Shown piece after piece: positions 14,688 through 34,648 of a DNA stretch of 41,501 nt (position 1 is the stretch's first letter; each line of letters opens with the position of its first letter). The stretch is taken from assembly GCA_945869845.1 (NCBI GenBank), contig CAMBRG010000017.1, positions 1 to 41,501 of the forward strand. Direction: 5' to 3'. The notes under the pieces are model-generated. The model had not been told where the DNA came from. It worked only from the letters and a program-made list of their open reading frames with translations, and did no database searches. Source of the stretch: Opitutus sp. GAS368. GTDB lineage: Bacteria; Verrucomicrobiota; Verrucomicrobiia; Opitutales; Opitutaceae. The position numbers and the translations under genes were made by a program.

Positions 14688-14700
14688 CTGGACGGCCGTG
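14681..14700. repeat. Right terminal inverted repeat of the IS4 element
   Basis: ctcataactggacggccgtg; its complement matches 13393-13412 at 17 of 20 positions. It contains the end of the transposase stop codon (14685-14687). Confidence 0.75.
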
Positions 14701-15246: not shown

Positions 15247-16377
15247 TCACTTTTTCACAAAGCTTTTGGCGCTATCACAGGCGCTTAAAATAAAGTATTT
15301 GGACAAATACTTGAAAGCATCATCTACTTTTGGGAAACATAAGTGCCCAATATAGTCGTTACTTCCACCAACGTTTATGTTGGGTCCAACCAGGAAATTT
15401 TTCTCTTCTTCAAAGTCGCCACCCGCATCCGCGATAAAATCTATTGCTGGTTGTTTTAGCGAAACAATACCAGACTTGCCTTTTTTTCCGTTTGATACGT
15501 TCCCCCAGTAGTTTCCGCCATCTGCTTTTCCTTTGCCGCAGGTCATTCTAAGTCCCCAATACGATTTCGGATGACCACTGACACAAATAAACTCTCTAAT
15601 TCCATTTTGCTGAATTGTTTGGGTCTTAACATGCTCTACTGTAGAGTCAGTTCTAATAGGCGGAATCTTTTGGAATACAGAATCTGTAATGGGTTTAAAA
15701 ATATCGTTAACAGCTTCGTCATTCTGAGCGTATAAAATCAAGAATTTGAAAAGGACGGTTCTATCGTTAAATGAACTATACTCATACCAATCAATGACTT
15801 GAGTGGTTGGCACAATAATTGGAACATAGGGCGGCATGCCTCGAACTCCGACATTGCCCCGGTCCACTTCACCGTGCCATAATAACTCTTGGTCTCTTTC
15901 CAATTTTCGTTGTTGGTGAAGGCTGAAATACCGACCAAGTTGATTTTTATTTAGGGTATTTTTTTCCCAGGCGTCAGATACACTGACAATTGATATCGAG
16001 TAGCCCCGGTGGGCTTGGCCCTCTTTCACCAGTTGCCCGACTCTATGCAAATCCTTAAGAATCCCGAAACGCGACATGTTAGTACCCCAGTTAGCTCCAT
16101 AAACTATCTCGGTGCCCTTGTGGTTAACCTCTACCTTTGAAGCTATATATTTCAATTCTATAGCTGTCCGAAGTTCATCCTTCTCCGCTAGTATATCGAC
16201 GCGGATAGGAATTTTTTTCCCGTTGATAGTAATTTTTGTTCGTCGTTCTAGTTGCGTGAAATACCCCGCATCATTTAGTTTAATCCGAAGACTTCTCTGA
16301 AATTCGCTTTCATTACGAAAGATCGGAGCTATACATGCTAAGTCTTTAAGTATAGTACGGAGGTTTTCTATGTTCAT
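15247..16377 (-). CDS. PD-(D/E)XK nuclease-like protein, otherwise unknown
   Basis: A 376-residue soluble protein. Residues 55-78 hold KIPIRVDILAEKDELRTAIELKYI, which fits a restriction-like PD-(D/E)XK core with Asp61, Glu74 and Lys76, preceded by an acidic helix (NESEFQRSL, Glu23/Glu25). After this N-terminal domain come about 250 residues I do not recognise (WYEYSSFNDRTVLFKFLILY, a GNYWGNVSNGKKGKSGIVS region), perhaps a target-recognition domain. Composition is more AT-rich than the genes to its left on the same strand, suggesting a separate origin. It is the last of six co-oriented minus-strand genes and stops close to the IS5 remnant. A restriction or abortive-infection nuclease role is inference from fold and context. 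Confidence 0.65.
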   Translation of the reverse strand: MNIENLRTILKDLACIAPIFRNESEFQRSLRIKLNDAGYFTQLERRTKITINGKKIPIRVDILAEKDELRTAIELKYIASKVEVNHKGTEIVYGANWGTNMSRFGILKDLHRVGQLVKEGQAHRGYSISIVSVSDAWEKNTLNKNQLGRYFSLHQQRKLERDQELLWHGEVDRGNVGVRGMPPYVPIIVPTTQVIDWYEYSSFNDRTVLFKFLILYAQNDEAVNDIFKPITDSVFQKIPPIRTDSTVEHVKTQTIQQNGIREFICVSGHPKSYWGLRMTCGKGKADGGNYWGNVSNGKKGKSGIVSLKQPAIDFIADAGGDFEEEKNFLVGPNINVGGSNDYIGHLCFPKVDDAFKYLSKYFILSACDSAKSFVKK

Positions 16378-16462
16378 GATTCTAAGCTGATAGCCAGGAG
16401 GTTGATAGTAACTAATATGCTAAAAAATATCTCAGGATTGGCTTTTTATTTCTGATGGAAAG

Positions 16463-18583
16463 CTAGTTTGATAATATCCATTGAAAAGTTCCAAGAATGG
16501 TTTTCTGCTTAGCTACTTTGTGTTTCCACTGCTCATGGAGCTTAACATCCCGGCCAAATCCCTCCGGAGCTATCGCGGCAGCTGCGGGATACTCGTCGAT
16601 GATTACGCGCCACGCCGCTGCGATCGCTTCTTTGCAGCCAGTATCGGCGATCTGCTGGGCCGAAACGAACTGCACGTCGTGGGGCGTCGCCAGCAATCGG
16701 GACGCGAGCGCGGCGGCATCTAGTTTCTCAACCAACAGTTTTCGTTGCTCCGCGTAATGCCGCGCAGCTCCCCCTCGCGCGCTTGAAAACCCTCCGTTTC
16801 CCAAGTGGAATGGCAGGCGGCGTACCGCCGAGTAGAGCAGCGCGCGTGGCCAATGTTCACCTGGATCCTCGTTATTGGGTCCTTGGCACTCTACGATGGC
16901 GTCATCGAACACTACCAGTGCAACGCGGGCCCGACCGTTTATCTTTAAGATATGGAAAAATGAGGAGTTTTGGAGGTAGTCTTTAGCGTGGTGCTCATGC
17001 CCCACACACCAACCGGAGCCTTGGGATTCGGCCGCCATAATTTTCGCCTCCTCTTGCCAGTTCTTCCCTTCGAAGACGAGCCATCGCGCGGGCTCCACCA
17101 AATGATCGCCGGACTCCGCGGATTCCAGCAGTGCTTTGTACTTATCAAGGAGGTTGTCGTTTGTCCGCACCGTCCCGTCGAAGATACCCCTGTGCAGGAG
17201 CGCGAGGGCTTCGGCATTGAGCCTGACTGGCGGGTCTACCCTCCCCTCCTTTGAAGACTTCACCACGAAATCTAGCACCATGTACTGGAACGCGGGACTG
17301 ACCCGGTACATTGGATTATCGCTTCTAAGGTAAGAATACCAGAGGCTGGTTTGTCGGTCTTTCTCCGCAAGCAGGCACCGAAGGAGTTTCAGCTCCGCTT
17401 TTTCAACCCGCGCTGGCCCGTATAGATCGTAGGCCAAATACAGTTCCTCCACGGCCGAGGAGAACGGCTCTCCCCTTGCGGCGTAATCGTCAGCATCCTC
17501 CAACAGCCCTCGGTAATGCGCGGGATCAGGGGAGTCCTTTGTTTTTTTCCGGAGGGCTGGCAGAAGTACTCGCCTGAGCTCATTCACGAGGATCTTTTCA
17601 CTCTTTATCCGACCGCTTCTCCATGTAATGCGGTTTTCATACTTCGCGACGAAGAAGGCCAGATAGGGGTCGGTGATACCGAAACGCCTGACCTTAGAAT
17701 GTTGGCGCCAAGAGCAACGATTCACGGCCGTTTCCGCCTTTTCAAGGGGAAGCTGGAACGCCTCGATCCACGCCCGAAACACGTTCCAACCGGCGCGGAC
17801 CATTCCTGGGTCCGGAATTCCCGTCAGCGAAAGGCAAACCCGCTTCGGGACGTTCCCCTCCCCCAACAGAATGTTGAATCGCTCAGTCTTAAAACCCTGT
17901 CCGCTCACTTTACGACGGAGCAAACCGAAGGCCGCTTGATCCTGACGAGCACAGGTGATCTTCAACTCAAGCTTGGGGTTGGCTCCTTGAATCAGCTCAA
18001 GCCGGCCTTTAAGGCACGGGTGAAATCCCCCCTTCATCGTGAACCAGGCCTTGAGGGCAGCCACAGAGGACTCGTTGGCGACCGTGGACAATATACGGCT
18101 GCGGATCTCGACCGGATTCCCAGCGTCGAAGTCGACGCGACCGCGTTTCCAACGGGCTTTTTCAGGATGCCCTTTGGGCAGTTCCTCGACCATTTGCTTC
18201 GTGAGCAAGTCTCGCTGGAGGTCCCATTGGAAACCCCGGGAGGTCCTTCGCGCGGGTCCCAGCCAGACCTCATCGGGAGTGAAGCCGTCCAAATTCCCTT
18301 TTTCAATCCGTCCGGTGCCCGCCTCGGCGACCTGATCGAAAAGAGCGGCGAGCGCCTCGGAATCGGATGTGAAAGCAGGGCTCGTAAAAGACGTGGGCGC
18401 GGAACTCAAACCGGCCAGCGCAGCCGCTCCCTGAGAAATCCGGGTCGGGAAGTACTCCCCCAGCAGTTCCTTGAGCGCGGTACCTGGCCCCATGGCTCGC
18501 TGCTGGTTTTCTGGCTGACGCGTTTGCAGTATCGCCAGCGCGCAAAGAAATTTGAACAGAGGTGGCGGAGGGGAATCATGCAT
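16463..18583 (-). CDS. Large PcfJ-like domain protein (first of two in the island)
   Basis: A 706-residue soluble protein. Most of it is unfamiliar. Near residues 495-590 a block reads ARWLVFEGKNWQEEAKIMAA, then GSGWCVGHEHHAKDYL, then IVECQGPNNEDP. This is the layout of PcfJ-like proteins (PF14284): an arginine/lysine helix, a G-x-x-x-CVG..Y core, a beta-strand pair and a final QGxxN. Length is greater than typical PcfJ. A GTG at 18613 is a possible earlier start; the ATG at 18583 is chosen. It lies 172 bp behind the DUF2779 nuclease gene and 85 bp before the PD-(D/E)XK-like gene on the same strand. Function unknown; PcfJ itself was named from a conjugation operon. Confidence 0.6.
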   Translation of the reverse strand: MHDSPPPPLFKFLCALAILQTRQPENQQRAMGPGTALKELLGEYFPTRISQGAAALAGLSSAPTSFTSPAFTSDSEALAALFDQVAEAGTGRIEKGNLDGFTPDEVWLGPARRTSRGFQWDLQRDLLTKQMVEELPKGHPEKARWKRGRVDFDAGNPVEIRSRILSTVANESSVAALKAWFTMKGGFHPCLKGRLELIQGANPKLELKITCARQDQAAFGLLRRKVSGQGFKTERFNILLGEGNVPKRVCLSLTGIPDPGMVRAGWNVFRAWIEAFQLPLEKAETAVNRCSWRQHSKVRRFGITDPYLAFFVAKYENRITWRSGRIKSEKILVNELRRVLLPALRKKTKDSPDPAHYRGLLEDADDYAARGEPFSSAVEELYLAYDLYGPARVEKAELKLLRCLLAEKDRQTSLWYSYLRSDNPMYRVSPAFQYMVLDFVVKSSKEGRVDPPVRLNAEALALLHRGIFDGTVRTNDNLLDKYKALLESAESGDHLVEPARWLVFEGKNWQEEAKIMAAESQGSGWCVGHEHHAKDYLQNSSFFHILKINGRARVALVVFDDAIVECQGPNNEDPGEHWPRALLYSAVRRLPFHLGNGGFSSARGGAARHYAEQRKLLVEKLDAAALASRLLATPHDVQFVSAQQIADTGCKEAIAAAWRVIIDEYPAAAAIAPEGFGRDVKLHEQWKHKVAKQKTILGTFQWILSN

Positions 18584-18755
18584 GGGGTGAAAGGACTGGG
18601 CGAAAACGCACAACTAAAATCGAGGCAATAAGGGTCCAGGAGGTTGGACCGATAAACAGAATGAGCTGCCCAATCCGAACTGTAACGAAAATCAATTTCC
18701 ACAGAAATAAAAGAATTCCTTCAGGGCGATGGCTAACTCTCCTTCGAACTTAGCC

Positions 18756-20699
18756 CTATGAGCTAAACTGCTCACTCCAGTGCGTCCAAATCATCACCAT
18801 CGCGGCCGTGTCGAGCTGGCAGTATTGAAGGAGCAGACGACGGCGGTTTTCGCGGAATTGTGGGTCGGTTTCGTGACGAAAAATTAGGTCTTGGTAGACG
18901 CGGATTGCACCGGTGCCGTCGGTGATGGCGTCCTCGTCGCCTTCGGCGTCGCCGAGTGGGAGCGGTGGTAATGATTTGTAGGGATCGCACGGGATGCCTT
19001 GGGCATCGAGTTGCAGGTAGGCGGCGAACCACGGATGGCCGCGCAGGGCGGCCGATGAGCGCCACACAGCGGGGAGCACGACTTTGATCGAGGTGCGGCC
19101 CAGCATCGCGGGATGAAAGTAGTGCGCGAGCGCGAGTTGGTGCAGATCGCGGATGCGGGGTGAGTGTCGTTTGCCCTTGGAGTCTTCCGGGCCGAGGAGG
19201 CAGTCGATCCAATCGGCAAGCTCATCGAGGGCCGCGCCGTTTGGGAGTCCGGATACCCGGAGCGCCTCGCAGGCGTCGCGCTGCACCCACTCCTCGATTT
19301 GGGCGAGTACGCGGTTGAGCGTGGATTGTTCGTACGGTGACCAGACATAGACGGTGCCATGCTCGCCGAGGTGCTGGCGGAGACTGGCGGCAAAGGCGAA
19401 ATTCGGGAAATCACGCTCGGTGTTGAGCCATTCGGCGTGCGCGAGTTCTCCCGACGAGTCCACCGTGTGGCAGCTCCACTGAAACGCCACGCGCTCGTAG
19501 GGGCGAAGACCCGCATGATAAGGCAGCGCGACGTTGCATGCTTCGAAGTCCAGAAAATACAACGGCCAGCCCGGGGAAGTTTGGTGGGTGCGGAGGGTCT
19601 CCGGCAAAACGCTCGGGAGATATTCGCTACCGCCGTCAGAGGAGTGCGACCACTGGATCTGACGGCGTTCTTGGCGAGTGCCCGCTTTGCCCAATTCATC
19701 TTCCTCCAAGTCGAGCAACGAGGCGCGACCCCGCGCGAGGAGACCTGACACCGGATCGGGAAACGTGCTGGAGCCGATCTGGCCGACGCGGTGTAGATTC
19801 AGGATATGCGGCGAGGCCTCAGCCAGTTGGCCCCAGCATTCAGCAAAGCCGTGGCCATGGGCGGGGCGACCATCCTGGAATCGGTATTCGCAGGTCCGGC
19901 AGGTTTTATAGTGTTCAGCGATGGGTTCCTGCACGCGGGTCACCCCGCCGCGACCATCGAGCAGCGAGGCTAGGTTTTCGGATCGGGTAGTGACTTCGTC
20001 GGCCAAGAGGTCGGTCTCGGCGGTGACATCGCGAAACGCGAGTAGTCCGGTGCCGCGTAGGGCGGAAAGATCGCCCTCGTAGATCACCTCGGGTCGGGAG
20101 CGCGGGTTCTGCTCGTCGCGCACGACGCGGAAGTGGGCCATTGTCTCGTGGGCGACCGCGCGATGGCCTTTGTTCACGACGCAGAGCCAAGGCTTCACAC
20201 GAAACGCCGGGAAGGCCTGTCGCAGCAGCCGCGCCTGAAACGCGACATCCAGGAGATACTCCCGCCAATTGGAGCTGACGGCGCCCTTGGCGTTGAGGAA
20301 GGGAGACGCAGCATCGTCCTCGGGATCTTCGGCATTGATCGAGGAGGATTTCACCTCGATGAGATGCAGGGTGTTGCCCTCGCGGCGGAGGACGTCGATG
20401 CGCGCGTAGAATTTCCCCCAAATCGTCGCAGCTTCGAAGATGACGGCATCGGGGGCGGCATTGAGTAATTCCGTCGTGCGGGCGAAGGCTCGCGAGGGAT
20501 CGCGTTCGTCGACGAGATCAACGCCGGCGGGGTATTGGGCCTTGGCGACGGTCTCGATCATGAAGCCGCCGTCGGCGAGAAATTTCAGGTATTCGTTTTC
20601 GTCAAGATTGGTGGCATAGGCGCGTTTCCGGTAGAAGAGCTTGGTCCGACAGTCGAAGCAGGCTTTGAAGTCGGATTTTGAAAGGTAGGGGCTGGGCAT
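18756..20699 (-). CDS. DUF2779 protein: Cas4-like PD-(D/E)XK nuclease fused to DEDD exonuclease-like domain
   Basis: A 647-residue protein. The N-terminal part has two cysteines (Cys14, Cys17), a PD-(D/E)XK core (YARIDVLRREGNTLHLIEVKSS: Asp102, Glu115, Lys117) and a later CRTC...C group (Cys267, Cys270, Cys288). One Cys cluster before and one after the nuclease core is the arrangement of Fe-S nucleases such as Cas4 and AddB. From about residue 380 comes the DUF2779 domain, RNase H-fold-like, with motif I YFLDFEACN (Asp385, Glu387) and the terminal YCQLDTAAMV (Asp630). Both nuclease sites look intact. Role unknown; a DNA-end-processing defence or repair function is inferred. It is 30 bp from the GIY-YIG-like gene. 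A fossil of a related gene lies at 29114-29175. Confidence 0.82.
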   Translation of the reverse strand: MPSPYLSKSDFKACFDCRTKLFYRKRAYATNLDENEYLKFLADGGFMIETVAKAQYPAGVDLVDERDPSRAFARTTELLNAAPDAVIFEAATIWGKFYARIDVLRREGNTLHLIEVKSSSINAEDPEDDAASPFLNAKGAVSSNWREYLLDVAFQARLLRQAFPAFRVKPWLCVVNKGHRAVAHETMAHFRVVRDEQNPRSRPEVIYEGDLSALRGTGLLAFRDVTAETDLLADEVTTRSENLASLLDGRGGVTRVQEPIAEHYKTCRTCEYRFQDGRPAHGHGFAECWGQLAEASPHILNLHRVGQIGSSTFPDPVSGLLARGRASLLDLEEDELGKAGTRQERRQIQWSHSSDGGSEYLPSVLPETLRTHQTSPGWPLYFLDFEACNVALPYHAGLRPYERVAFQWSCHTVDSSGELAHAEWLNTERDFPNFAFAASLRQHLGEHGTVYVWSPYEQSTLNRVLAQIEEWVQRDACEALRVSGLPNGAALDELADWIDCLLGPEDSKGKRHSPRIRDLHQLALAHYFHPAMLGRTSIKVVLPAVWRSSAALRGHPWFAAYLQLDAQGIPCDPYKSLPPLPLGDAEGDEDAITDGTGAIRVYQDLIFRHETDPQFRENRRRLLLQYCQLDTAAMVMIWTHWSEQFSS

Positions 20700-20729
20700 G
20701 GCGTAAGGGCGAAAGCGTAATTCACTGAT

Positions 20730-21377
20730 TCAGTTCCCATCGCGGTTTAGCAATTGTGGACCATAACCCGCTGATTTTAGGGTCCAAAGTCGGAGCATTT
20801 CCTCGACGTAAAGAGGAGCGTTGGGGACTTCAGGTAAAATGCGATGGGCACTAGGGTTCCATAATTCAAAATGCACAAACACGGGTTGAAGCAACCGAGG
20901 TGCGACCAAACCTCCACTGGATACACCAGGACCGAAAAGCTTAGTAACCCAGTTTGCGTAGCCTTTGTGCCCTTCGAACAAAGAACGGCTCAAGCAATCC
21001 ACATGACCATTGCTCTCGTAACCATCGCAGAAACGAGCGGCCCGAATTCGCCAGAGTCCACTGGATTTTACCCCTTTTTTGTTCGAGCTATTAGCGATGC
21101 CGACATATAGCGGGTCTGGGTCGCCCATGCTATCACGACGGTAGACAAAGTACGAGACACCTTCGATCAAGCGAGGGCCTTTCCAGTCGGCGATGATGGT
21201 GGCCGCCAGCGCAGCGACGGCGTTCACAAGGGGTTGAGAGCAGCATAGCCGCGGTTGTGGTCCTGCAGCAATAATGGGAGTCACACCATCGGATTTTACC
21301 TCGAGGAGTGGTGAATCGTTTTTTTGTATCGAGGCAAACCAAGCACGAGCGTGTTTAGAGGATTTATTGGGATTCAT
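20730..21377 (-). CDS. GIY-YIG-like nuclease domain protein
   Basis: A 215-residue soluble protein. The core IEGVSYFVYRRDSMGDPDPL then YVGIANSSN fits a GIY...YIG pair (GVSYFVY / YVG). A downstream LWRIRAARF supplies an arginine and NGHVDCLSRSLFEGHKGY a His/Arg segment, the usual order G-Y, Y-G, R, H of this superfamily. The terminal glutamate is not obvious, so catalytic competence is uncertain. The C-terminal third (PVFVHFELWNPSAHRILPEV, then PNAPLYVEEMLRLW) may form the rest of the domain. It lies 38 bp after the tandem AAA+ gene and 30 bp before the DUF2779 gene, all on the same strand, so it is likely one transcript. Alternative: a non-catalytic DNA-binding GIY-YIG relative. Confidence 0.55.
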   Translation of the reverse strand: MNPNKSSKHARAWFASIQKNDSPLLEVKSDGVTPIIAAGPQPRLCCSQPLVNAVAALAATIIADWKGPRLIEGVSYFVYRRDSMGDPDPLYVGIANSSNKKGVKSSGLWRIRAARFCDGYESNGHVDCLSRSLFEGHKGYANWVTKLFGPGVSSGGLVAPRLLQPVFVHFELWNPSAHRILPEVPNAPLYVEEMLRLWTLKSAGYGPQLLNRDGN

Positions 21378-21415
21378 GAAAGAAATTTACAGCTGGAAGT
21401 GAGACATATGAGGTC

Positions 21416-23650
21416 CTAGTCGCTCAAATTTGCCCCAAACCCAATCAATTGTTTTCGGGCTCCCGGTTTACGGCTACATTCACTCTCCAATGCAGCGACC
21501 CAACCCGCGGCGACGGGCATGGGCTTAAAACGATGCTGGCGGGCTACCGCAGCGAAATCACCCGGTGTTAAGTTTGAAAGACTCTGCAACTGCCGGAGAT
21601 CTTCAGGGAGCGCCGGATCCAAACGCGTAGCACTGAGGTGCGCGGTGAGAAGGCTAGCTGACTGAGCCGGTTTCAAGAATCCGAAATTGGCTTTGTAGTC
21701 GAAACGTCGTAACGAAGCCGAATCTAGACCCTCCATAAAATTGGTGGATGCGATAAATATTCCTTCGAACTCCTCCATGCGGGTTAGGAACTCGTTTACC
21801 TGGGTTACTTCGTAGGTACGCTGCGCCTTGGAACGGTCCTGCAGAAAACTATCACACTCGTCGATGACGAGCACGGCTCCGCTCTCGGTCGCTTCGGCGA
21901 AGGCCGCCGCGATGTTTTTTTCCGCTTCGCCAACATAGCGGCTCAGTAACTCGCTCACGCGTTTGATCATGATTTTCTTACCCAGTTGTTCGGCGAGCCA
22001 CCGCGCGTACGCACTTTTGCCAGTGCCGGGCGGCCCCCAGAATAACAGCCGGGCCGATTTAGCTTCGCGGATGCCCCCGACGAGGGCAACGGGATCGAAG
22101 TCGGTGTTCACATAGGTTGGATCGTAGACCGCATCCGCCGCGCGCGTTAGCTTAAGCGGACGGTGACCTTGCGCCAACAGGGTCTGGTTCACGAGCAACT
22201 CCATCACTTGATTGGTTTGATCCGGGGCCATTTCTTTCTGGATAGCGCTGATCACCCCCGCGGCGCGACTCACCACCGCAGGTGAAAGATCGTCGCATGA
22301 GGCTAATGTGCTAATGGCCTGTGAAGACAACTCCACGGGGAGCTGCCGCAACTGGACCTCTCGCACCACGGACGGAGGATTTTTCATCTCGATGGCGAGG
22401 TCAAACCGGCGAACAACGGCTGGGTCCAATGCATCGATCGCATTCGTAATCCAGACGCAGGGATTTGGATTTTTCTCCAAGACCCGATTGATCCAGCCCT
22501 TGAACCGCATCGAGGGCTTACCGAAAATCGGATGGGGCCGTGGAAAAATATCTTCGATCTCGTCGAATACGAGAAGGCAGGGACGGGCCGACGAAAAGCC
22601 CTGCAGAACCCGCAGCGCTTGCAGTCTCCGTGGACCATCCATCGGATCTCCGTCCTCATCTTGCGACGCGACTTCAAAGCTATCGATTTTAAGTTCGCTG
22701 GCGAGCGCTCGACTAAATTCGCTTTTACCCGTCCCGGGGACGCCGTGCAAAAGAACGTTAACTCCGGGCTTCTTCAGGGCGAGCGCCTGACGCAAATAGC
22801 TAAGTGGAAGACTAGCCAATTGACCCATATGGGCAAAACTCACCCAGTCCAAAGTAGGAGCCAAAGCTGGACAAATTCGGTCACGCATCGCACGAAATGG
22901 GTCGAAGTCGGGAAGCATCATTTGATGCGAAAAACTACGGGACACCCACCGGAACTTGGCTTGGAGAAGGTTCAAGTCGTGGTCCCAGCAGATCAACTGG
23001 GAGCCGACGAGAGACCCGCTCGAGGCAAATACTTTATGCACATCCTCCAGCGGCAAAGCGGTCGCTTTTGCCACGATTTCGACGGCGTGCAGGTCGGAGA
23101 GCTCTGGGCCAAACAAGGAAGCTGCGGAGCCGATGGATCCGTCGCAAGATAGGTGGAGCAGGAAGGCCAATACCATTGTTTCATTGTCACTGAGCGCCAG
23201 TAAACGTGCCACAGCGCCAAGGCTAAACCTTGCATTTTGATCGATCACCTCGAGCCAAGGCGCCTTCAATTTTTTCTCCAGCGCACTGATTTGCCGCAGG
23301 GACTCACCGCGAAAAAGACGGTGGGTCTCGGACGAGCCTAGATCTTCATTGGGTGCTGTTAGGCCTAAGATCGTGCCGACATTGTTCGCCATCTGCTCAG
23401 ACCAGTTGATTGCGCTACGGGGCGTTTTGCTACTCGCTCGTCGGCCGATTTTTGGAAACCGTGGATCAGGAAAAGCAGCGCCTGAAGTCGTCTTCAAATA
23501 GTGTTCAACCATCCGTAACGCCCAAATGCGTGGAATCAGATCGGGCTCAACCCCGGCACGCACTTGACGACGAGAAGGCGGTCGCGATTTTTGCTGAGGG
23601 CTCGAGCTAGATTCGGACGTTTGGATATTTAGAAGACTCGGAAGATTCAT
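21416..23650 (-). CDS. Tandem AAA+ ATPase
   Basis: A 744-residue protein with two complete AAA+ modules. Module 1: Walker A GVPGTGKS (residues 303-310), Walker B LLVFDE (359-364), sensor/arginine region ITNAIDALDPAVVRRFD. Module 2: Walker A GPPGTGKS (539-546), Walker B VLVIDE (593-598), sensor 1 STN and arginines in SASLRRFD. The N-terminal 300 residues are helical and unrecognised. The second module resembles spastin/SpoVK-type ATPases. Such tandem proteins remodel proteins or nucleoprotein complexes; here the GIY-YIG-like and DUF2779 nucleases right behind it are candidate clients (inference). An in-frame ATG at 23764 exists but its extra 38 residues look non-coding; MNLPSLLNIQ is chosen as the start. 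Confidence 0.85.
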   Translation of the reverse strand: MNLPSLLNIQTSESSSSPQQKSRPPSRRQVRAGVEPDLIPRIWALRMVEHYLKTTSGAAFPDPRFPKIGRRASSKTPRSAINWSEQMANNVGTILGLTAPNEDLGSSETHRLFRGESLRQISALEKKLKAPWLEVIDQNARFSLGAVARLLALSDNETMVLAFLLHLSCDGSIGSAASLFGPELSDLHAVEIVAKATALPLEDVHKVFASSGSLVGSQLICWDHDLNLLQAKFRWVSRSFSHQMMLPDFDPFRAMRDRICPALAPTLDWVSFAHMGQLASLPLSYLRQALALKKPGVNVLLHGVPGTGKSEFSRALASELKIDSFEVASQDEDGDPMDGPRRLQALRVLQGFSSARPCLLVFDEIEDIFPRPHPIFGKPSMRFKGWINRVLEKNPNPCVWITNAIDALDPAVVRRFDLAIEMKNPPSVVREVQLRQLPVELSSQAISTLASCDDLSPAVVSRAAGVISAIQKEMAPDQTNQVMELLVNQTLLAQGHRPLKLTRAADAVYDPTYVNTDFDPVALVGGIREAKSARLLFWGPPGTGKSAYARWLAEQLGKKIMIKRVSELLSRYVGEAEKNIAAAFAEATESGAVLVIDECDSFLQDRSKAQRTYEVTQVNEFLTRMEEFEGIFIASTNFMEGLDSASLRRFDYKANFGFLKPAQSASLLTAHLSATRLDPALPEDLRQLQSLSNLTPGDFAAVARQHRFKPMPVAAGWVAALESECSRKPGARKQLIGFGANLSD

Positions 23651-23842
23651 ATGAACGTAGCTTCGTTGATTCAGACGCCCAACGAGCGTCCTACTAAAAA
23701 TATTGTTTGCGCATCGGTCGCACGTTTTCAGACGTCGCTTTTTATTAGCGAGATGACTTCGCACAGAAACCGGGCGATTTCGGACGGTCCTAATCTCCCG
23801 GTTCTGGGATTCCTAATCCTCGCTTTGCCTTAGCCTGATTTC

Positions 23843-24871
23843 TTACAAAAGCACCGCTCCTCGTGGGACCTGCTTTTCCCAATATTCCGCCTGACTCGCC
23901 TTGTTGACATACTGCAAGAACCGCAGTTTCCCCGGTTGGCTTTCATAGACTTTCGCATGAGCTTCGAAGGTTTTTCGAGCATACGCTTCCCACGCTGCTT
24001 TATCGTAGGTCACCGCTTCTAACCATCCCGCTTCCGCATTAAACCCCGCTTCCTTCAATGCCGTTTTTGTCCGCTCGAAGCTTTCACCCCGCACATTGAT
24101 GACTTCAGCCCAAATATGCTCGCAGCGATCCGCTCGAATCGCCTTCGCACAGTCTTCCGCAAAACGATCGTAGTCCGAATCACTTCCCAAGGGTAACGAC
24201 GGACATACCATTCCGAAAGTTCGATACCCACTATCTTGGAGCCACCATAACGACTCGATCCGTTTTGATACCTTAGGTGTCCCTTGTTCGTACGCCGCCG
24301 CTAGCCGATCATCGAGGTTTCCGGTCGACACCCCATAAATCATTCGACTCCGATACCCCGATAACGACTCAGCTATTTTCGGCAACAGGTTGGATTTCGA
24401 CAACAACCTGATTTCCCAATTCGTAAGCTCGAGAATGACCTTACAAATTTCGACGGTTTCACGAGCCAACTCCATGTTCGCCGCCACATCGACCAACGGA
24501 CTCGCATAGATCACTCGACGATCTTCTTCATTCAAAAATTTAGGTTCGCCGTTCCCTCTGGTTAGTTGCTCTTTCACGATTTCAACTGGATTTCGACGAC
24601 GGATTACGATTTTCGTATGATCCTCTGGATTCGCGATCCGATGAGGGTTCTTCCGCATGAGATCTTCCACATAGCAAAAGGAACAACTGTAACCGCAACT
24701 GCTTCCGGAAGATAAGGTTAGTCCATCGCATAACAACTTATGACTAAAGTTGCTTTTGAAATTTATCACACTTTTCGCCTCAACCCAGATGACCGGTTTT
24801 CCGTTCATCGTAGTCCGATTTACAAGGGCTGCTTCAACGCCCGAATTTTGATCTAGTTTTGAGTTTTGCAT
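23843..24871 (-). CDS. Radical SAM enzyme, SplB-like
   Basis: A 342-residue protein with the CxxxCxxC cluster CGYSCSFC (Cys59, Cys63, Cys66) that binds the [4Fe-4S] cluster cleaving S-adenosylmethionine. The following YVEDLMRKNP, VIYASPLVDVAANMELA and WEIRLLSKSNLLPKIAESL segments match the radical-SAM group related to spore photoproduct lyase and DNA-repair-photolyase-like proteins (COG1533 type). The substrate is unknown; a nucleic-acid or nucleotide target is inferred from that relationship. It is the first of the six co-oriented minus genes, 192 bp upstream of the AAA+ gene, and divergent from the second PcfJ-like gene. A small palindrome lies 14-30 bp upstream of its start. Confidence 0.8.
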   Translation of the reverse strand: MQNSKLDQNSGVEAALVNRTTMNGKPVIWVEAKSVINFKSNFSHKLLCDGLTLSSGSSCGYSCSFCYVEDLMRKNPHRIANPEDHTKIVIRRRNPVEIVKEQLTRGNGEPKFLNEEDRRVIYASPLVDVAANMELARETVEICKVILELTNWEIRLLSKSNLLPKIAESLSGYRSRMIYGVSTGNLDDRLAAAYEQGTPKVSKRIESLWWLQDSGYRTFGMVCPSLPLGSDSDYDRFAEDCAKAIRADRCEHIWAEVINVRGESFERTKTALKEAGFNAEAGWLEAVTYDKAAWEAYARKTFEAHAKVYESQPGKLRFLQYVNKASQAEYWEKQVPRGAVLL

Positions 24872-24884
24872 AGCGCCGATAGTA

Positions 24885-24901
24885 TCTCACGGCTAGTGAG
24901 A
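24885..24901. promoter_or_regulatory. Palindrome in the divergent intergenic region (possible operator)
   Basis: tctcac-ggcta-gtgaga is a perfect 6-bp inverted repeat with a 5-base centre, 14 bp upstream of the radical-SAM start and 183 bp upstream of the PcfJ-like start at 25084. A WYL regulator is encoded 1.7 kb away. Operator function is inference. Confidence 0.4.
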
Positions 24902-25083
24902 CATATCATTGGCTAGATCTTTATTTTCTTCTTTTTCCGGCCTCTAAGCCGCCTTTGCCATTAACGATCAGGCTGAGCCAACGATCGCGGAGGACTCATA
25001 AAAACGAGCCTGAAATTTTGGGTGTACCCCACTGCCTGTCCGTGTGCTTCAGACAAAATCGGTTCAAACTATTCGCTCCTTTT

Positions 25084-26523
25084 ATGAACTATTTTAGCCA
25101 TCGTCGCGACCGCTACCACCATCGCAATCCCCGGTTCTCCCGCGAGGGTGTGTTTTTTTCAAAAGTGGGGCGCGAGACCTTCGCCCTCACCGCGTGGCCG
25201 GATCTGGCTTCCTTTCGTCATAGCGGTTGGCAAGGGTCGACTTGGGAGCCAGACCGCCAGGCCGGTAATCGAGTTTACGCGGCCTTTCACGTCGCTAAAC
25301 CTAGCTATCACTTCTGGGCAGATACGCTGTGCGAAGCTGCAACCGGTCAGGTCGTGATTCCATCGTTCTTAACTACGGGTGAAGCCCGCGCCACTGAATC
25401 TGAACTCGCCGCGCAAGCTGCCAGCCACGTGCATACCCAGTGGCAGCATTTCATTGCGACGATTCCGCCCGCCTTGTACGCGACCGCCTTTCCTTTCCTC
25501 CATAACCGCCTTGCGGTGCTGCGCCTGCTTGCAGTGTGCCCTGAGGCCAAAACTTTGGCGGATGAAAACCCAAGTGTGTTTTTCGAGCTGTGCTGCCACT
25601 TTGACCGCTCGATCAGTCCGAAAGCCCTCCGTCCTCAAATCCTCGAAATGCTACGTGGTCCACAAAGCGATATCCTCGCTGTTCGCGGATTGCCGAACTC
25701 AGAATCGGCGCGCCGGCTCTTTCGCAAACTGCCGAAAGCCCATATTTGTTCGCCACATCTGCTCAATCTCGGCCGAGCGCTTGCGGACAAAGCCATTGGA
25801 AAATGGCTTCCGCACATCACCCCTCCTTCTAGCCATATCGCCCACTTGTTGAGCGACTCGAGTCTTTGGACCTACCTTACCCCGCAACTAACGACCGATC
25901 TAGTCAAACCCTGCGGCTACGAGGAAGACCCGGAAGTCGCCGAAATTTTCCAACGCTTCGCAATTCGTGATGCCCTGAAGCAACTTCGCTGGTTTGATCG
26001 TCAGGTCCGCCGCGGGCTCGCCGCGCGTCGTCGTTTTCGCACCTCCAAAGAACTTGCGAGCCTCCCCGACCTGCCAGAACAGCTGTGCGGTTTGGCGATC
26101 CCTATTCGCACCAAACCCGCGCCTTTTCGGAAGCCTTTTCCAGCTGCACCAATTCCGGGTACCGAAGAGGTGGTGCCCATCACTTCTTACGAGGAACTAT
26201 TGGCCGAGGGCGCGAGCCAGAAAAACTGTGCAGGTGCACCCTACCACGTCCTCTTGCTTAAGGAGCGCAAAGCGTACTTTTATCGCGTCCTGGAGCTTAA
26301 CGGCCTCGAACGGTGCACGGCGATGATTGAGCGTCGTTCGGTAATAGGCAAAAAGCTAAGTTGGGTAATCACGGAACTACGGGCTTATTCGGGCGCAATT
26401 CCTCGCCGCTCGACCCTTCAGAGGGTCGCGAACGCTCTAGGCTTGCCGGCTCGGCCCGACTGGTTTCCTCAGGGCGCGTGGTTTTGCGAAGATGAAAATT
26501 ATGTGTGCGTTCCACGAAAATAA
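25084..26523 (+). CDS. PcfJ-like protein (second of two in the island)
   Basis: A 479-residue soluble protein. The N-terminus is rich in His/Arg (MNYFSHRRDRYHHRNPRFSR). The C-terminal 120 residues show the PcfJ pattern more clearly than the first copy: PITSYEELLAEGASQKNCAGAPYHVLL, then RKAYFYRVLELNGLERCTAMIER, then SWVITELRAYSGAIP, ending with a helix (TLQRVANAL). The canonical HCV motif is NCAG here. An earlier in-frame ATG at 24955 gives 43 unlikely residues. The gene is divergent from the six-gene minus cluster and convergent with the WYL regulator, with a hairpin between. Function unknown; whether the two PcfJ-like proteins work together is open. Confidence 0.7.
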   Translation: MNYFSHRRDRYHHRNPRFSREGVFFSKVGRETFALTAWPDLASFRHSGWQGSTWEPDRQAGNRVYAAFHVAKPSYHFWADTLCEAATGQVVIPSFLTTGEARATESELAAQAASHVHTQWQHFIATIPPALYATAFPFLHNRLAVLRLLAVCPEAKTLADENPSVFFELCCHFDRSISPKALRPQILEMLRGPQSDILAVRGLPNSESARRLFRKLPKAHICSPHLLNLGRALADKAIGKWLPHITPPSSHIAHLLSDSSLWTYLTPQLTTDLVKPCGYEEDPEVAEIFQRFAIRDALKQLRWFDRQVRRGLAARRRFRTSKELASLPDLPEQLCGLAIPIRTKPAPFRKPFPAAPIPGTEEVVPITSYEELLAEGASQKNCAGAPYHVLLLKERKAYFYRVLELNGLERCTAMIERRSVIGKKLSWVITELRAYSGAIPRRSTLQRVANALGLPARPDWFPQGAWFCEDENYVCVPRK

Positions 26524-26539
26524 TCCGTCATCCCCCTTG

Positions 26540-26563
26540 AGTCTGACTCCGTTGGGTCAGACT
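26540..26563. terminator. Hairpin between convergent genes
   Basis: agtctgac (26540-26547) and gtcagact (26556-26563) pair perfectly around an 8-base loop; flanking atccc/gggat can extend it. It lies between the PcfJ-like stop and the convergent WYL stop. T-runs are weak, so a bidirectional terminator is probable but not certain. Confidence 0.6.
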
Positions 26564-26580
26564 GGGATGGCCTGTTCGTT

Positions 26581-27615
26581 CTATTTATTTTTTGCCATGC
26601 TTTTCTTACCCTCAGCCGCAATCACAACACGCAACTCAGCTGGCTTGAGGACCTCGATATCCCCGCCAAATCCCAGAATCCAGCGCGTGACATCATTCAG
26701 GTCACTCAAAGCAAAGGTCACCTTAACCGCTCCTCCGGGGAGTGATGTCACGTGCTGTGTGTCGTGCCAGTGACGCTCGGTCACGTGGTGGCTGCCTTCA
26801 GCGCTGATCTCCAACTCGACAATCGTTTCACCTTTTCCCGTCCAGACGCCGAACGCAGTACCGAGGTGCTTAACCGGATCAAACCCGATGGGTCGTTCAA
26901 ACTTGGTCCCCGGAGTGAGAGGATTCCTCATGCGGGCGAGGACATACGTTCGCACCTCTTTCTTCTCAACGTCTAGAGCCACCAATATCCATCGGCTTTC
27001 AACACAGGCGAGGTGGTAGGGGTGAAGTCGGCGCTCGGTAAAAGCCGGTCGACCTTTGGCCTGATACTCGACGTGCAAGTCCTGATGATTCAGCAGCGCG
27101 CGACGCACCGCATTAAAGAGCTTCTGGTCTCGCACGATTCCAGCTCCCGGAGTTCTTACCGAAAAATAAACATCAAGCGATTCGCTTTGAAGATCTTCCC
27201 CGTCGATCAGCAGTCCACCGGTGATTTTTTGAAAAGCCGATGTCAGCTCCTCTCCGAAGCCCATGCCGGAAAAAACATTCAAGGTCTTGCTGGCGACCAC
27301 GAGAGCCACGCGCTCTTCGTAACTCAAATTGTGGCCGAGCGGAAAGTTCAGCACCTCATGGGTATAGACAAAACTCTTGTCCGTATAGTCGTACTCAATG
27401 GGCAAGTCCAAGGTATCGCGCATGTAGTTCACATCGCGCTGAATGGTCTTCGGGCTCATCCCGCATATTTCGCCAAGAATGCGGCAATTCACTCGGTCCC
27501 CGTTTCGATACGAACGGTTAAGGTAATCGTGAATCTTCAGAAGTCGGGGCACCTGGGGCTTCCCTATTTTTTTTCGGGCGGTAGGGGCGGACCGTTTGGC
27601 AGTTTTCTTTTGCAT
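26581..27615 (-). CDS. WYL-domain transcription regulator
   Basis: A 344-residue regulator. After a basic N-terminal tail, a winged helix-turn-helix of the DeoR type spans about residues 25-90 (RLLKIHDYLNRSYRNGDRVN, then SPKTIQRDVNYMRDTL). The WYL domain follows, with HLACVESRWILVALDVEKK and RTYVLARM matching the ligand-binding WYL core; a C-terminal WCX-like segment completes it. WYL proteins sense nucleic acids or nucleotides and commonly regulate phage-defence loci (for example BrxR/CapW; established knowledge). Its place inside this nuclease-rich island supports it as the local regulator. It is divergent from the OGG-fold-like gene with 67 bp between starts, a likely autoregulated promoter. 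Confidence 0.9.
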   Translation of the reverse strand: MQKKTAKRSAPTARKKIGKPQVPRLLKIHDYLNRSYRNGDRVNCRILGEICGMSPKTIQRDVNYMRDTLDLPIEYDYTDKSFVYTHEVLNFPLGHNLSYEERVALVVASKTLNVFSGMGFGEELTSAFQKITGGLLIDGEDLQSESLDVYFSVRTPGAGIVRDQKLFNAVRRALLNHQDLHVEYQAKGRPAFTERRLHPYHLACVESRWILVALDVEKKEVRTYVLARMRNPLTPGTKFERPIGFDPVKHLGTAFGVWTGKGETIVELEISAEGSHHVTERHWHDTQHVTSLPGGAVKVTFALSDLNDVTRWILGFGGDIEVLKPAELRVVIAAEGKKSMAKNK

Positions 27616-27682
27616 CGAAGAAGGCTAATTTTGGTACACGGCCATCGTTTGGGGGTCTGAGTACTTTAGGGTTGTAACCACT

Positions 27683-28312
27683 ATGCCTTACCTTTGTCAC
27701 CCGCCTATCAAGCTTATGATTCAAGCCCTGCCGGTCACCGAACACTCGGTTGAAGTTGAAGCCGATTTCTGGCTCCCTTTTTTCGCCCACGCTCAACGCC
27801 TGCCCATTCACGAAGCGATCTTCGCCGGTAGACCCACGGTCCGCATTTCACGCTCTTGGCTGCGTTCGGAGAATTTAAATTCTGAAGTGCGCGCCGCGGC
27901 CACAATTTTGTGGGGCTACCCGAAGGGGGCTCGTGGCGCACGCCACTCCCACTGGCTCGCTAACCTAGCGCAAATCGCTGAAGCGGCTGATACTCGGGAT
28001 CTCTGCTGGGCCGACTATTACCAAAAACTACACGCAATTGGTGAACTCGGCATTCCGACTATATCTAAGCTCGCGTATTGTTTCTCACAAAAATTTCAGG
28101 GACATCCTGCCTTGATTTTAGATCAGCGAATCCTGGCCGTACTTTCTTCGGGTCGGTGGTCAGATTTAGTCGGGCTCCATAACATAAATTATGTCACCGC
28201 TAGTGCTCACTACGTTGATTATTTGGCGTTGTTAGCCGGGATTGCAGTCTTGGGTAGTTTCTCGAGCGAACAGCTAGAATTTTTCTTATTCACACACGGT
28301 AATAGCTTCTAG
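27683..28312 (+). CDS. Possible OGG-fold (8-oxoguanine glycosylase-like) protein
   Basis: A 209-residue protein (198 if started at the in-frame ATG 27716, MIQALPVTEH, which looks better). The second half reads LGIPTISKLAYCFSQKFQGHP, then LILDQRILAVLSSGRW, resembling the 'OGG fold' group in which S-K-x-x-Y-F and a conserved LDSRVA-type Asp follow the helix-hairpin-helix. DNA lyase/glycosylase activity is not proven: the catalytic lysine is not assignable here. Proteins of this group are seen in defence and mobile loci. It is divergent from the WYL gene and 35 bp ahead of the SIMPL gene. Assignment is from pattern recognition; moderate. Confidence 0.5.
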   Translation: MPYLCHPPIKLMIQALPVTEHSVEVEADFWLPFFAHAQRLPIHEAIFAGRPTVRISRSWLRSENLNSEVRAAATILWGYPKGARGARHSHWLANLAQIAEAADTRDLCWADYYQKLHAIGELGIPTISKLAYCFSQKFQGHPALILDQRILAVLSSGRWSDLVGLHNINYVTASAHYVDYLALLAGIAVLGSFSSEQLEFFLFTHGNSF

Positions 28313-28347
28313 TCTCCCTCTATCTACTTCCTCAACTTTTAACATTC

Positions 28348-29097
28348 ATGTCTAACCAATCTTCCTCCCTCCCATCACGCTACGGTATGATCGCCGGTCT
28401 ATTTCTCGCTGGCGGCATCTGCTTTGGCTCAATCGTTCTGGCTCGAACCTGGATTCATTTGAAAGAATCCGAAATCATCGAAGTTGCGGGCTCGACGCGT
28501 AAGAATGTGCGTTCCGACCTGGCGGTCTGGACCGCCAGGGTCAGCGTCGAAGACACGACCATTCAAGGCGCCTACGCCAAGCTGAAGGTCGACGTCGAGA
28601 AAGTGGATCAATTCCTAAAAGCTCGTAAACAGGTCAATGGTGGCTGGAGCCCTGTCGAAGTCGGCGAACTCACGGCCCCGCGGCACAAGCACGACGATGA
28701 AAACGCCCCGCAAAAGCGCATTGGGTACAGAGTAGCCCAATCCTTCAAGGTATCATCTACTGATGTCGACGGACTGCCGCGGTTGGCCAGGGATTGCACC
28801 GAGCTGCTTGATCAAGGTGTCGTGCTTATGAGCGAGAGCATCCAATACATCTACACCAAAGCGGGCGAAGCCAAAGTCGAGATGGCCGCGGAAGCGACGC
28901 GAGACGCCCGCGCTCGCGCTGAGCAAATCGCTAGCCAAGGCGGCCGTCAGGTCCGCGCCCTGCGAACCGCGAAGATGGGTATTGTTCAAATCAACCCCGT
29001 ATATTCAACGGCGACCTCGGACGGCGGAAATTCCGACGAATCCTCCCTCGAGAAAACGATCGTCGTTACGGTTTCAGCCAAATTTACCCTAAAATAA
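28348..29097 (+). CDS. SIMPL-domain (DUF541) envelope protein
   Basis: A 249-residue protein with one N-terminal membrane anchor (GMIAGLFLAGGICFGSIVLA), then a SIMPL domain: IIEVAGSTRKNVRSDLAVWTA, the central RVAQSFKVSSTDVDGLPRLA, and the end EKTIVVTVSAKFTLK. YggE and relatives bind porin/interleukin-kinase-type partners or protect against oxidative stress; here it is probably periplasm-facing. It follows the OGG-fold-like gene by 35 bp and could share its transcript, but may simply be the first host gene on the right side of the island. Confidence 0.85.
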   Translation: MSNQSSSLPSRYGMIAGLFLAGGICFGSIVLARTWIHLKESEIIEVAGSTRKNVRSDLAVWTARVSVEDTTIQGAYAKLKVDVEKVDQFLKARKQVNGGWSPVEVGELTAPRHKHDDENAPQKRIGYRVAQSFKVSSTDVDGLPRLARDCTELLDQGVVLMSESIQYIYTKAGEAKVEMAAEATRDARARAEQIASQGGRQVRALRTAKMGIVQINPVYSTATSDGGNSDESSLEKTIVVTVSAKFTLK

Positions 29098-29113
29098 ATG
29101 GGGCCGCCCTAGC

Positions 29114-29175
29114 CGACTTTGATCGAGGTGCGGCCCTGCATCGCAGGGTGGAAGTAGGAATCGAGCGCGAGCTGG
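29114..29175 (-). pseudogene. Fossil fragment of a DUF2779 gene
   Basis: 62 bases align without gaps to 19079-19140 inside the DUF2779 gene with 53 matches. Translated on the minus strand it gives QLALDSYFHPAMQGRTSIKV against QLALAHYFHPAMLGRTSIKV in the full gene (17 of 20). A stop follows after one more residue, and similarity fades on both sides. It is a relic of a related, not identical, gene at the island's right edge, 123 bp from the hisA stop codon. Confidence 0.8.
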
Positions 29176-29297
29176 TACTCCGCCACCCGGGTTGTAGCCC
29201 GTCCGGGCAGACCTGCCGGGGCGATTGGCCACGACTTTATTTTCCGACCTGCTGGAGTTTCCCTGCTGCGAACGATCGGTTCAGTTACGCCGCGCTG

Positions 29298-32462: not shown

Positions 32463-32554
32463 GAGGAGCACGTTGCTCAGGCCAACATCTGAGTCCAGTG
32501 CGGAGTTCGCCGCTTCAGCGTTCCTCGCGCGATCCCGGCCTGCTTGCCCTTAAA

Positions 32555-33181
32555 TCAAGCCGCGCTCGGCACCACGATCTTTTGAGCTTCGCGGGTCGAA
32601 GCGATCACGTGATCGACGATCCCGTAAGCTTTGGCCTCGTCCGCCGCCATGTAGTAATCGCGATCGGAGTTCGCTTCCACATCGGCTACGGGCTTGCCCG
32701 TGTGCTTCGCCAAAACCCCGTTGAGGGTCTCGCGCCAACGAATGATTTCGCGGGCCGCGATGGCGATGTCCGCCGTTTGTCCGCCCGCGCCACCGCTGGG
32801 TTGGTGAATCATAACCCGGCTGTTCGGCAGCGCGAACCGCTTCCCCTTGGTCCCCGCGGCGAGCAGCACCGTGCTCATACTCGCAACCATGCCGATGCAA
32901 TAGGTGACGACGTCGAATTGCATAAAATTCATCGTGTCGTAAATCGCCATGCCGGCAGTCACGCTGCCGCCCGGAGAGTTGATGTAAACATGAACGTCTT
33001 TTTTTGCGTCCTCCATTTGGAGATACAGCATCTGCGCGATAACCAAGTTGGCGACCTGGTCATCAATGGGCGTGCCGATGAAAATAATTCTGTCCTTCAG
33101 CAGTCGCGAGTAGACGTCCATGGCCCGGGTCTCGCGGCCGTTACTGTCATAAATGGTGGGATTCGGCAGGTAATAGCTCAC
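32555..33181 (-). CDS. clpP: ATP-dependent protease subunit ClpP
   Basis: A 208-residue serine protease. Catalytic Ser lies in [17 protein letters not shown], His in [11 protein letters not shown] and Asp in [14 protein letters not shown] is the oxyanion-loop motif. The start is set at the GTG of [10 protein letters not shown] (33181): a longer frame would run into the tig gene. The Ser context is ASMS rather than the more common ASMG/ASMA. Forms the ClpXP protease with the next gene. Confidence 0.95.
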
Positions 33182-33197
33182 GGTGTTTTTGATTCGC

Positions 33198-34520: not shown

Positions 34521-34648
34521 AGTGAGATTCTTAACGGTAATTTCGCTAAATGAATCGGGCAACCTACGAAGCAGCCCAGCACGGTCAATGCCGGATTCCG
34601 CCATGCTGAGCGCTTGCAGGGCAAGGTCTCGAATCATTTGTATGGGGT

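What the first reader, a model, noticed from the sequence alone, without database searches (positions are those of the whole stretch)
15247..28312. Unnamed nuclease/ATPase island: candidate new anti-mobile-element system
Eight of nine consecutive genes carry modules typical of conflict systems: PD-(D/E)XK-like, PcfJ-like, DUF2779 double nuclease, GIY-YIG-like, tandem AAA+, divergent PcfJ-like, WYL regulator and OGG-fold-like; the radical-SAM gene is the least typical. Six are co-oriented, and the GIY-YIG/AAA+/DUF2779 genes are 30-38 bp apart. I cannot match this set to any named defence system. That it is one system rather than several nested ones is inference.
Basis: partly seen in the sequence, partly recalled or inferred. 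Interest (0 to 1): 0.85.

Follow-up and report, generated by a model that had tools for sequence, protein, structure and literature searches.

The report
ClpP-linked unfoldase island with nucleases
A cluster of DNA-cutting and repair genes in a bacterium is built around a switch protein and a ring-shaped motor whose tail looks made to plug into the cell's ClpP protein shredder, which, if confirmed, would be a new type of protein-destroying machine tied to bacterial defence or damage response.

Summary
The genes are real and the island is more than chance, but it is not one nine-gene system. A core recurs: a tandem AAA+ ATPase (21416-23650), a WYL regulator and sometimes a DUF2779 double nuclease. 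In 69 loci of the AAA+ family WYL occurs in 29 and DUF2779 in 8; in 62 control loci, neither. DUF2779 and radical SAM also occur without the AAA+ gene (7 of 15 and 6 of 9 loci). A SIMPL gene outside the finding (28348-29097) belongs; the two leftmost genes do not recur.

The main new result is mechanistic. The AAA+ protein is Cdc48-like, with two intact motors, an aromatic pore loop and a disordered C-terminal tail carrying IGF, the tripeptide by which Clp ATPases dock on ClpP. The motif lies in the last 25 residues of 60 of 66 members (upstream windows 0 of 66; other AAA proteins 9 of 63), and a clpP gene adjoins the AAA+ gene in 6 of 69 loci. I read the core as a WYL-controlled ClpP-partner unfoldase with variable nuclease and repair cargo. 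Anti-mobile-element function is plausible but untested; damage response is the main rival.

The parts
21416..23650 (-). Core: tandem AAA+ ATPase, Cdc48-like, 744 aa from the ATG at 23650 (ORF open to a GTG at 23764)
   Evidence: PF00004 twice; phrog_10401 1.8e-103; model pLDDT 80.5; p97/Cdc48/Rix7/NVL fold matches
21437..21445 (-). IGF tripeptide (residues 736-738) in the C-terminal tail, ClpP-docking-like
   Evidence: 60 of 66 members in the last 25 aa, 0 of 66 upstream; tail mostly under pLDDT 50
26581..27615 (-). Core: WYL-WCX regulator
   Evidence: best match in G458, G075, G001 and G333 lies in the AAA+ or 215 aa locus
18756..20699 (-). Frequent partner: DUF2779 protein, Cas4-like plus DEDD exonuclease-like
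   Evidence: PF11074; motifs in 11 sequences; beside AAA+ in 8 of 69 loci
20730..21377 (-). 215 aa protein, GIY-YIG-like by eye
   Evidence: 50% identical copy beside WYL in G001; no Pfam hit, model failed
23843..24871 (-). Radical SAM protein
   Evidence: also near AAA+ in G458 and G333
27683..28312 (+). OGG-like glycosylase-fold protein
   Evidence: PF21790 1.2e-15; near WYL and AAA+ in G333; no match in 140 other genomes
28348..29097 (+). SIMPL (DUF541) protein, outside the finding, 35 bp after the OGG-like gene
   Evidence: PF04402 4.5e-22; in 6 of 69 AAA+ loci
29115..29177 (-). 21-residue relic of a second DUF2779 gene, right edge of the island
   Evidence: 81% identity to residues 520-540, E 1.9e-8 in a 281 bp target
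24955..26523 (+). 522 aa protein, weakly PcfJ-like; cargo, link uncertain
   Evidence: relatives near WYL or DUF2779 in L146, L147, L170, L196, none near AAA+
16463..18613 (-). 716 aa protein, PcfJ-like claim not supported; probably extra cargo
   Evidence: no Pfam hit; only in the window's genome of 141
15247..16377 (-). 376 aa protein, PD-(D/E)XK-like by eye; probably extra cargo
   Evidence: no Pfam hit; weak C-terminal matches in 2 other genomes of 141
32555..33298 (-). Housekeeping-type clpP outside the island, the presumed partner protease here
   Evidence: translation; matches the AAA+-linked ClpPs at 1e-48 to 1e-68

Best explanation
The island is built on a WYL-controlled tandem AAA+ unfoldase that works with ClpP. 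Proposed steps: the WYL protein controls the cluster and responds to damaged or foreign nucleic acid or a nucleotide derived from it (inferred from the WYL family). The Cdc48-like ring grips a target protein with the aromatic pore loop of its second motor (motif shown) and docks on ClpP through its C-terminal IGF tail (motif and gene linkage shown, docking inferred), so that the target is unfolded and degraded. Alongside, variable nuclease and repair partners (here the DUF2779, 215 aa, OGG-like and radical SAM proteins, with SIMPL) act on nucleic acids or the envelope. The result is a two-armed response, regulated proteolysis plus nucleic-acid processing, most likely against invading DNA or the damage it causes. 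The target protein is unknown.
For: Both motors invariant in 67 of 67 sequences, pore-loop aromatic in 66 of 67. Tail motif in 60 of 66, 0 of 66 at six upstream offsets, 9 of 63 other AAA proteins; 6 of 9 in plasmid homologues not used to find it. clpP adjacent on the same strand in 6 of 69 loci, two lineages, 0 of 62 controls. WYL in 29 and DUF2779 in 8 of 69 loci, 0 of 62 controls. AAA+, DUF2779 and WYL together on Rhodoferax, Diaphorobacter and Sphingobium plasmids. Restriction-type and ADP-ribose-processing neighbours.
Against: 63 of 69 loci have no clpP beside the AAA+ gene, the window included. The control set also has the motif in 9 of 63, and 3 of the 66 members lack even GF near the end. 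WYL was not found in 40 of 69 loci. None of 7 DUF2779 loci fetched from the DUF2779 side has the AAA+ gene. The tail could dock something else. No experiment.
Confidence: 0.5

Rival explanations
1. A WYL-triggered damage-repair or stress regulon rather than immunity: the OGG-like, radical SAM and exonuclease proteins repair DNA, SIMPL answers envelope or oxidative stress, and the AAA+/ClpP machine clears damaged complexes.
For: OGG-like, radical SAM (weakly similar to spore photoproduct lyase, 9.3e-5) and SIMPL genes recur with the core in the window's family. AAA+-SIMPL stands without detected nuclease or WYL in three loci of one genus. WYL proteins that answer DNA damage are known (DriD, PafBC; passage of PMC9122601).
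Against: Plasmid carriage (7 of the 69 loci and 9 more), patchy spread (12 of 252 genomes of the family), turnover of cargo, GmrSD- and REase-type neighbours.
Confidence: 0.35
2. Several independent defence or mobile modules nested in one hotspot, with the AAA+/WYL pair as just one of them and no functional link to the nucleases.
For: WYL and AAA+ stand alone in G075 and G550; DUF2779, radical SAM and the 522 aa family occur without AAA+ (7 of 15, 6 of 9 and 8 of 9 loci); transposase-like ORFs at the left edge (by eye).
Against: DUF2779 next to AAA+ in two distant groups, in close same-strand gaps in the window and on plasmids.
Confidence: 0.3
3. The AAA+ protein is a Cdc48-like segregase whose conserved tail packs in the ring or binds a partner other than ClpP; clpP adjacency is incidental.
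For: Fold matches p97, Rix7 and NVL; most loci lack clpP.
Against: Tail is disordered in the model, matches the docking consensus of Clp ATPases, and clpP is adjacent in two lineages and in both orders.
Confidence: 0.25
4. One reading: all nine genes are one anti-mobile-element system.
For: One locus, mostly one strand, close gaps.
Against: No other locus held has the full set; the 716 and 376 aa genes are not found with it elsewhere.
Confidence: 0.04

Closest known systems
ClpA, ClpC, ClpX: ATPase partners of ClpP
   Same: AAA+ motor with aromatic pore loop and an (L/I/V)-G-(F/L) docking tripeptide (passages of PMC8745299); clpP beside the gene in 6 of 69 loci
   Different: Classic AAA (PF00004), Cdc48-like; the Clp-type AAA_2 match is below cut-off; the tripeptide sits in the C-terminal tail, not in an internal loop (loop position in Clp ATPases)
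Cdc48/p97, Rix7, NVL tandem AAA unfoldases
   Same: Two AAA rings, best fold matches
   Different: Different helical N-domain as predicted (not searched alone), conserved IGF tail, WYL, nuclease or clpP neighbours
IetAS
   Same: AAA domain similarity to IetA, 3.4e-38 over about 160 residues
   Different: 122.5 bits against a cut-off of 510; no subtilase among the nine proteins
BrxR-type WYL regulators of defence islands (PMC9122601, passages)
   Same: WYL-WCX protein beside variable nucleic-acid enzymes
   Different: No BREX or other named system found here by PADLOC
ADP-ribosylglycohydrolase conflict systems with WYL (PMC9503650, passages)
   Same: WYL and ADP-ribosylglycohydrolase next to the AAA+ gene in L018 and L236
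   Different: The passages seen name no AAA+ unfoldase and no ClpP; the window has no such glycohydrolase in the nine proteins scanned

Membership tests
ClpP-partner unfoldases (by function) | Active AAA motors with a substrate pore loop | tested here: met
   Walker and Arg residues 67 of 67; pore-loop aromatic 66 of 67, Gly 67 of 67
ClpP-partner unfoldases (by function) | (L/I/V)-G-(F/L) docking tripeptide | tested here: met
   60 of 66 with (I/L/V/M/F)GF in the last 25 aa, in the tail rather than a loop; consensus
ClpP-partner unfoldases (by function) | Binds ClpP and feeds it substrate | not testable with these tools
   Needs biochemistry; only gene adjacency in 6 of 69 loci
Clp/Hsp100 family (by descent) | Clp-type AAA_2 (PF07724) above cut-off | tested here: not met
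   17.4 bits against 27
IetAS | IetA equivalog score | tested here: not met
   122.5 against 510 bits
IetAS | Subtilase partner IetS | tested here: not met
   No subtilase match among the nine proteins
BREX, DISARM and other PADLOC systems | System core proteins detectable by PADLOC models | tested here: not met
   Ten proteins scanned; only WYL models, AAA-domain matches and weak hits
WYL regulators | WYL and WCX domains | tested here: met
   55.7 and 60.7 bits, above cut-offs
WYL regulators | N-terminal DNA-binding HTH | tested here: inconclusive
   No Pfam HTH listed for the protein; whole-length PADLOC WYL model matched
Cas4-like nucleases | D, ExK and four cluster-binding Cys | tested here: met
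   Motifs in 11 sequences, E115/K117 nearly invariant; no structure made
GIY-YIG nucleases (215 aa protein) | Profile match or fold | tested here: not met
   No Pfam family; model pLDDT 32, unusable
PcfJ family (522 and 716 aa proteins) | PF14284 above cut-off of 25 bits | tested here: not met
   11.2 bits and no hit; best relatives 21.4 and 20.9 bits
OGG-like (PF21790) | Profile above cut-off | tested here: met
   58.2 against 27 bits
OGG-like (PF21790) | Catalytic Lys and Asp of 8-oxoguanine glycosylases | tested here: inconclusive
   K129 and D147 invariant in the two sequences aligned; equivalence to OGG1 is recalled
SIMPL/DUF541 | PF04402 above cut-off | tested here: met
   79.8 against 25.2 bits

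The most novel reading that the evidence does not exclude
A previously unnoticed class of ClpP unfoldase, of the Cdc48 rather than the Clp branch and docking through its C-terminal tail, spread by plasmids and islands under WYL control, gives bacteria a dedicated protein-destruction arm that works together with swappable nucleases against invading DNA.
Probability: 0.35. Interest if true: 0.85.

Novelty: new variant of a known kind. Interest (0 to 1): 0.66.

Why it matters
The ClpP partners I know of (ClpX, ClpA, ClpC, ClpE; recalled) all belong to the Clp branch. A Cdc48-type partner, found in 63 of 387 sampled genomes of the window's phylum (some matching only over the second AAA domain) and on plasmids, would extend the set of bacterial ATP-dependent proteases and link regulated proteolysis to WYL-controlled nuclease islands. 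It is directly testable with a single tail substitution and a ClpP pull-down.

Tried and rejected
Rejected: one nine-gene system (no other locus held has it). Rejected: IetAS or another PADLOC or NCBIfam system. Led nowhere: promoter scan (6 sites, shuffles 7.8) and terminator scan (28 sites, shuffles 18.2), which do not define operons here; PDB sequence searches with three proteins gave no useful match. Failed: structure of the 215 aa protein, so no fold search was made with it. The viral-contig scan for the 215 aa protein found no relative; the AAA+ scan there gave 10 loci, one in the family as I cut it (L111). I first took the SIMPL gene for flank and reversed that. A search of the phages collection gave 30 records, one covering 75% of the query. 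The organism was not identified; from a Kiritimatiellae contig nested among 'same phylum' genomes in the tree I infer Verrucomicrobiota in the GTDB sense.

Of the 77 match rows I fetched a part, chosen by score and spread. Controls are other AAA genes. The WYL, DUF2779 and SIMPL profiles were built from hits in the same collection, which favours this clade. Loci end at contig ends, so absence of a neighbour is often not shown. Genes in relatives were called by simple ORF scripts, so some gaps and overlaps are rough. The tail motif was noticed and counted before the neighbour cluster was identified as ClpP. The first tree display failed and was repeated.

Full report
Observation. Pfam supports DUF2779, tandem AAA, WYL-WCX and OGG-like domains; radical SAM is below cut-off, but its CxxxCxxC is invariant in the six aligned sequences, window included. 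PD-(D/E)XK (376 aa) and GIY-YIG (215 aa) are motif readings only; PcfJ is weak for the 522 aa protein and unsupported for the 716 aa protein. The gaps of 30 and 38 bp around the 215 aa gene are correct. Transposase-like ORFs (by eye) lie at 13551-15207. GC drops against the left flank but not clearly against the right. The right border lies further out than reported: a SIMPL gene (28348-29097), then a 21-residue relic of a second DUF2779 gene at 29115-29177, then hisA (29298-30023, by eye).

Conservation in the window's family. G458 carries radical SAM, DUF2779 (E 7.5e-223), AAA+, SIMPL and WYL within 11 kb, SIMPL and WYL overlapping by 4 bp as called. G333 carries a GIY-YIG-like gene (by eye; no Pfam support and not detectably related to the 215 aa protein), AAA+ and WYL with OGG divergent, in the window's order and orientation, and radical SAM elsewhere in the locus. 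G001 has WYL beside a 50% identical copy of the 215 aa gene on a 5 kb contig. G075 and G550 show only WYL and AAA+ of the window's set. In genus g7, SIMPL directly follows AAA+ in three loci (44 and 46 bp; overlapping as called in the third). In the window's AAA+ clade of 8 (support 100), SIMPL is in 6; one of the other two contigs ends inside the AAA+ gene. The family search found the AAA+ gene in 12 of 252 genomes. By contrast the 716 aa gene was found in the window's genome alone of 141, and the 376 aa gene has only C-terminal matches in 2 others. I therefore take 18756-29177 as the island proper and 15247-18613 as extra cargo (inference).

Results against linkage. Taken from their own side, the cargo genes often stand alone: of the loci held, DUF2779 is without an AAA+ family member in 7 of 15, radical SAM in 6 of 9, the 522 aa family in 8 of 9 and SIMPL in 1 of 7. 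The DUF2779 loci without AAA+ are those fetched by the DUF2779 search; most of those with it came from AAA+ searches, so 8 of 15 is not a fair rate. The OGG-like gene had no match in 140 other genomes; G333 was not among them.

Conservation beyond the family. tblastn against plasmids gave 729 records, none covering 80% of the query; the best six have 35-44% identity over 74-76%. Rhodoferax and Diaphorobacter plasmids have AAA+, DUF2779, WYL in a row. Sphingobium has DUF2779 and WYL divergent from AAA+, and Azospirillum has both near it. WYL adjoins AAA+ in Pantoea, Fuscovulum, Sphaerotilus, Novosphingobium, Leisingera and Desulfosarcina and lies near it in Thiodictyon and Methylomonas. Counter-examples: Pseudomonas luteola has WYL only 7.8 kb away, and Variovorax and Croceicoccus have none within about 6 kb. 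Over 69 family loci (E under 1e-40) WYL is present in 29 (26 within 3 kb), DUF2779 in 8 (all within 3 kb), SIMPL in 6, radical SAM in 3 and OGG-like in 2; in 62 control loci around other AAA genes, none of these. The AAA+ gene was found in 63 of 387 genomes of the phylum at E 1e-40, some matching only over the second AAA domain.

The AAA+ protein. Walker A and B residues and both arginine pairs are identical in 67 of 67 sequences; the second ring has a pore loop with an aromatic residue in 66 of 67 and an invariant Gly two residues on. The model (16 sequences, mean pLDDT 80.5) has a helical N-terminal region, two AAA domains and a mostly disordered tail. It matches p97/Cdc48, Rix7 and NVL: best Z 18.9 with 435 residues at 9.7 A rmsd for both rings, and about 215-220 residues at 2.6-2.9 A for one ring. 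The tail carries IGF. In 66 complete members the motif (I/L/V/M/F)GF lies in the last 25 residues of 60, in the last 12 of 58 and in the last 5 of 41; at six upstream offsets it is found in 0 of 66; in other AAA proteins, in 9 of 63. Of the six misses, three keep GF with another residue before it and three lack it. In nine further plasmid homologues 6 have it; a seventh has IGF just outside the 25-residue window. PMC8745299 (passages) gives (L/I/V)-G-(F/L) as the tripeptide by which Clp ATPases bind hydrophobic pockets of ClpP; the window's own ClpX (by eye) has LGF.

ClpP linkage. A neighbour cluster listed proved to be ClpP: two of its members were scanned, PF00574 1e-81 and 4.3e-82. A search with the window's ClpP found clpP beside AAA+, same strand, in L035, L138, L140, L141, L143 and L169: 6 of 69 loci, four with gaps of 17-148 bp and two with overlapping called ORFs. 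clpP comes before AAA+ in L035, L141 and L169 and after it in L138, L140 and L143. In the tree these are two lineages, four rows of one family and two sister rows. The window's own clpP is 8.8 kb away, beside clpX. Controls: 0 of 62. Other recurrent neighbour clusters among 55 loci, with one protein of each scanned: RtcR-type regulator in 10, ADP-ribosylglycohydrolase 8, MoxR-like and vWA-like pair 6, GmrSD-type restriction 5, Sir2 3.

Mechanism and function. Shown: recurrent gene linkage, intact motors, pore loop, tail motif, clpP adjacency. Inferred: docking, degradation, control by WYL, cooperation with the nucleases. Whether the response is immunity or damage repair is open. Plasmid carriage, cargo turnover and restriction-type neighbours favour immunity; OGG-like, radical SAM and SIMPL genes, and the AAA+-SIMPL loci of genus g7, favour a stress role. 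I put the ClpP-partner step at about 0.7 and anti-mobile-element function at about 0.5; the full statement stands at 0.5.

Literature. Ten searches showed no listed paper whose title or abstract start joins this AAA+ family, WYL and ClpP. Two listed papers hold the words ClpP, WYL and AAA+ ATPase; passages of both (PMC7824862; PMC12707154) treat them apart, as phage-encoded ClpP and ClpXP control of restriction. Seen as passages: PMC8745299, PMC4012209, PMC9503650, PMC9122601, PMC7824862, PMC12707154. Seen as listing and abstract start only: PMC9122588, PMC9122589. The 2016 paper on RNA-repair conflict systems (10.1093/nar/gkw722) is recalled and not held, so a description there or in subscription literature is not excluded.

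Noticed in passing
31170-34664: A housekeeping-type tig-clpP-clpX run (by eye; clpP also by similarity) lies about 2 kb right of the island, so a ClpP is encoded near by.
   Followed up: partly
19079-19141 and 29114-29176: A 63 bp direct repeat, 86% identical, is a piece of the DUF2779 gene and a relic of a second copy beyond SIMPL; the island may once have had DUF2779 next to SIMPL.
   Followed up: yes
L190 and L191 (same genome, G055): Two copies of a radical SAM relative sit in near-identical surroundings of the same genome, with an integrase-like ORF (by eye) beside one, as if the gene rides a mobile element.
   Followed up: no
L146 3745-8389: 522 aa-family (PcfJ-like), WYL and DUF2779 genes side by side in the window's genus without an AAA+ gene, perhaps a parallel module.
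   Followed up: partly
L138, L139, L141, L143, L152, L155, L158, L162, L164, L165: A cluster of RtcR-type sigma-54 regulators (one member scanned) lies within 7 kb of the AAA+ gene in 10 of 55 loci, perhaps an alternative regulator where WYL is missing.
   Followed up: no
L156, L157, L165, L167, L168, L169: A MoxR-like and vWA/metallopeptidase-like (DUF2201) gene pair accompanies the AAA+ gene in 6 of 55 loci.
   Followed up: no
L223 869-6665: Genome G522 holds two AAA+ family loci; the second has DUF2779, a calcineurin-like phosphoesterase and SIMPL beside it.
   Followed up: no
13551-15207: Two transposase-like ORFs (by eye) that overlap each other abut the left end of the island.
   Followed up: no
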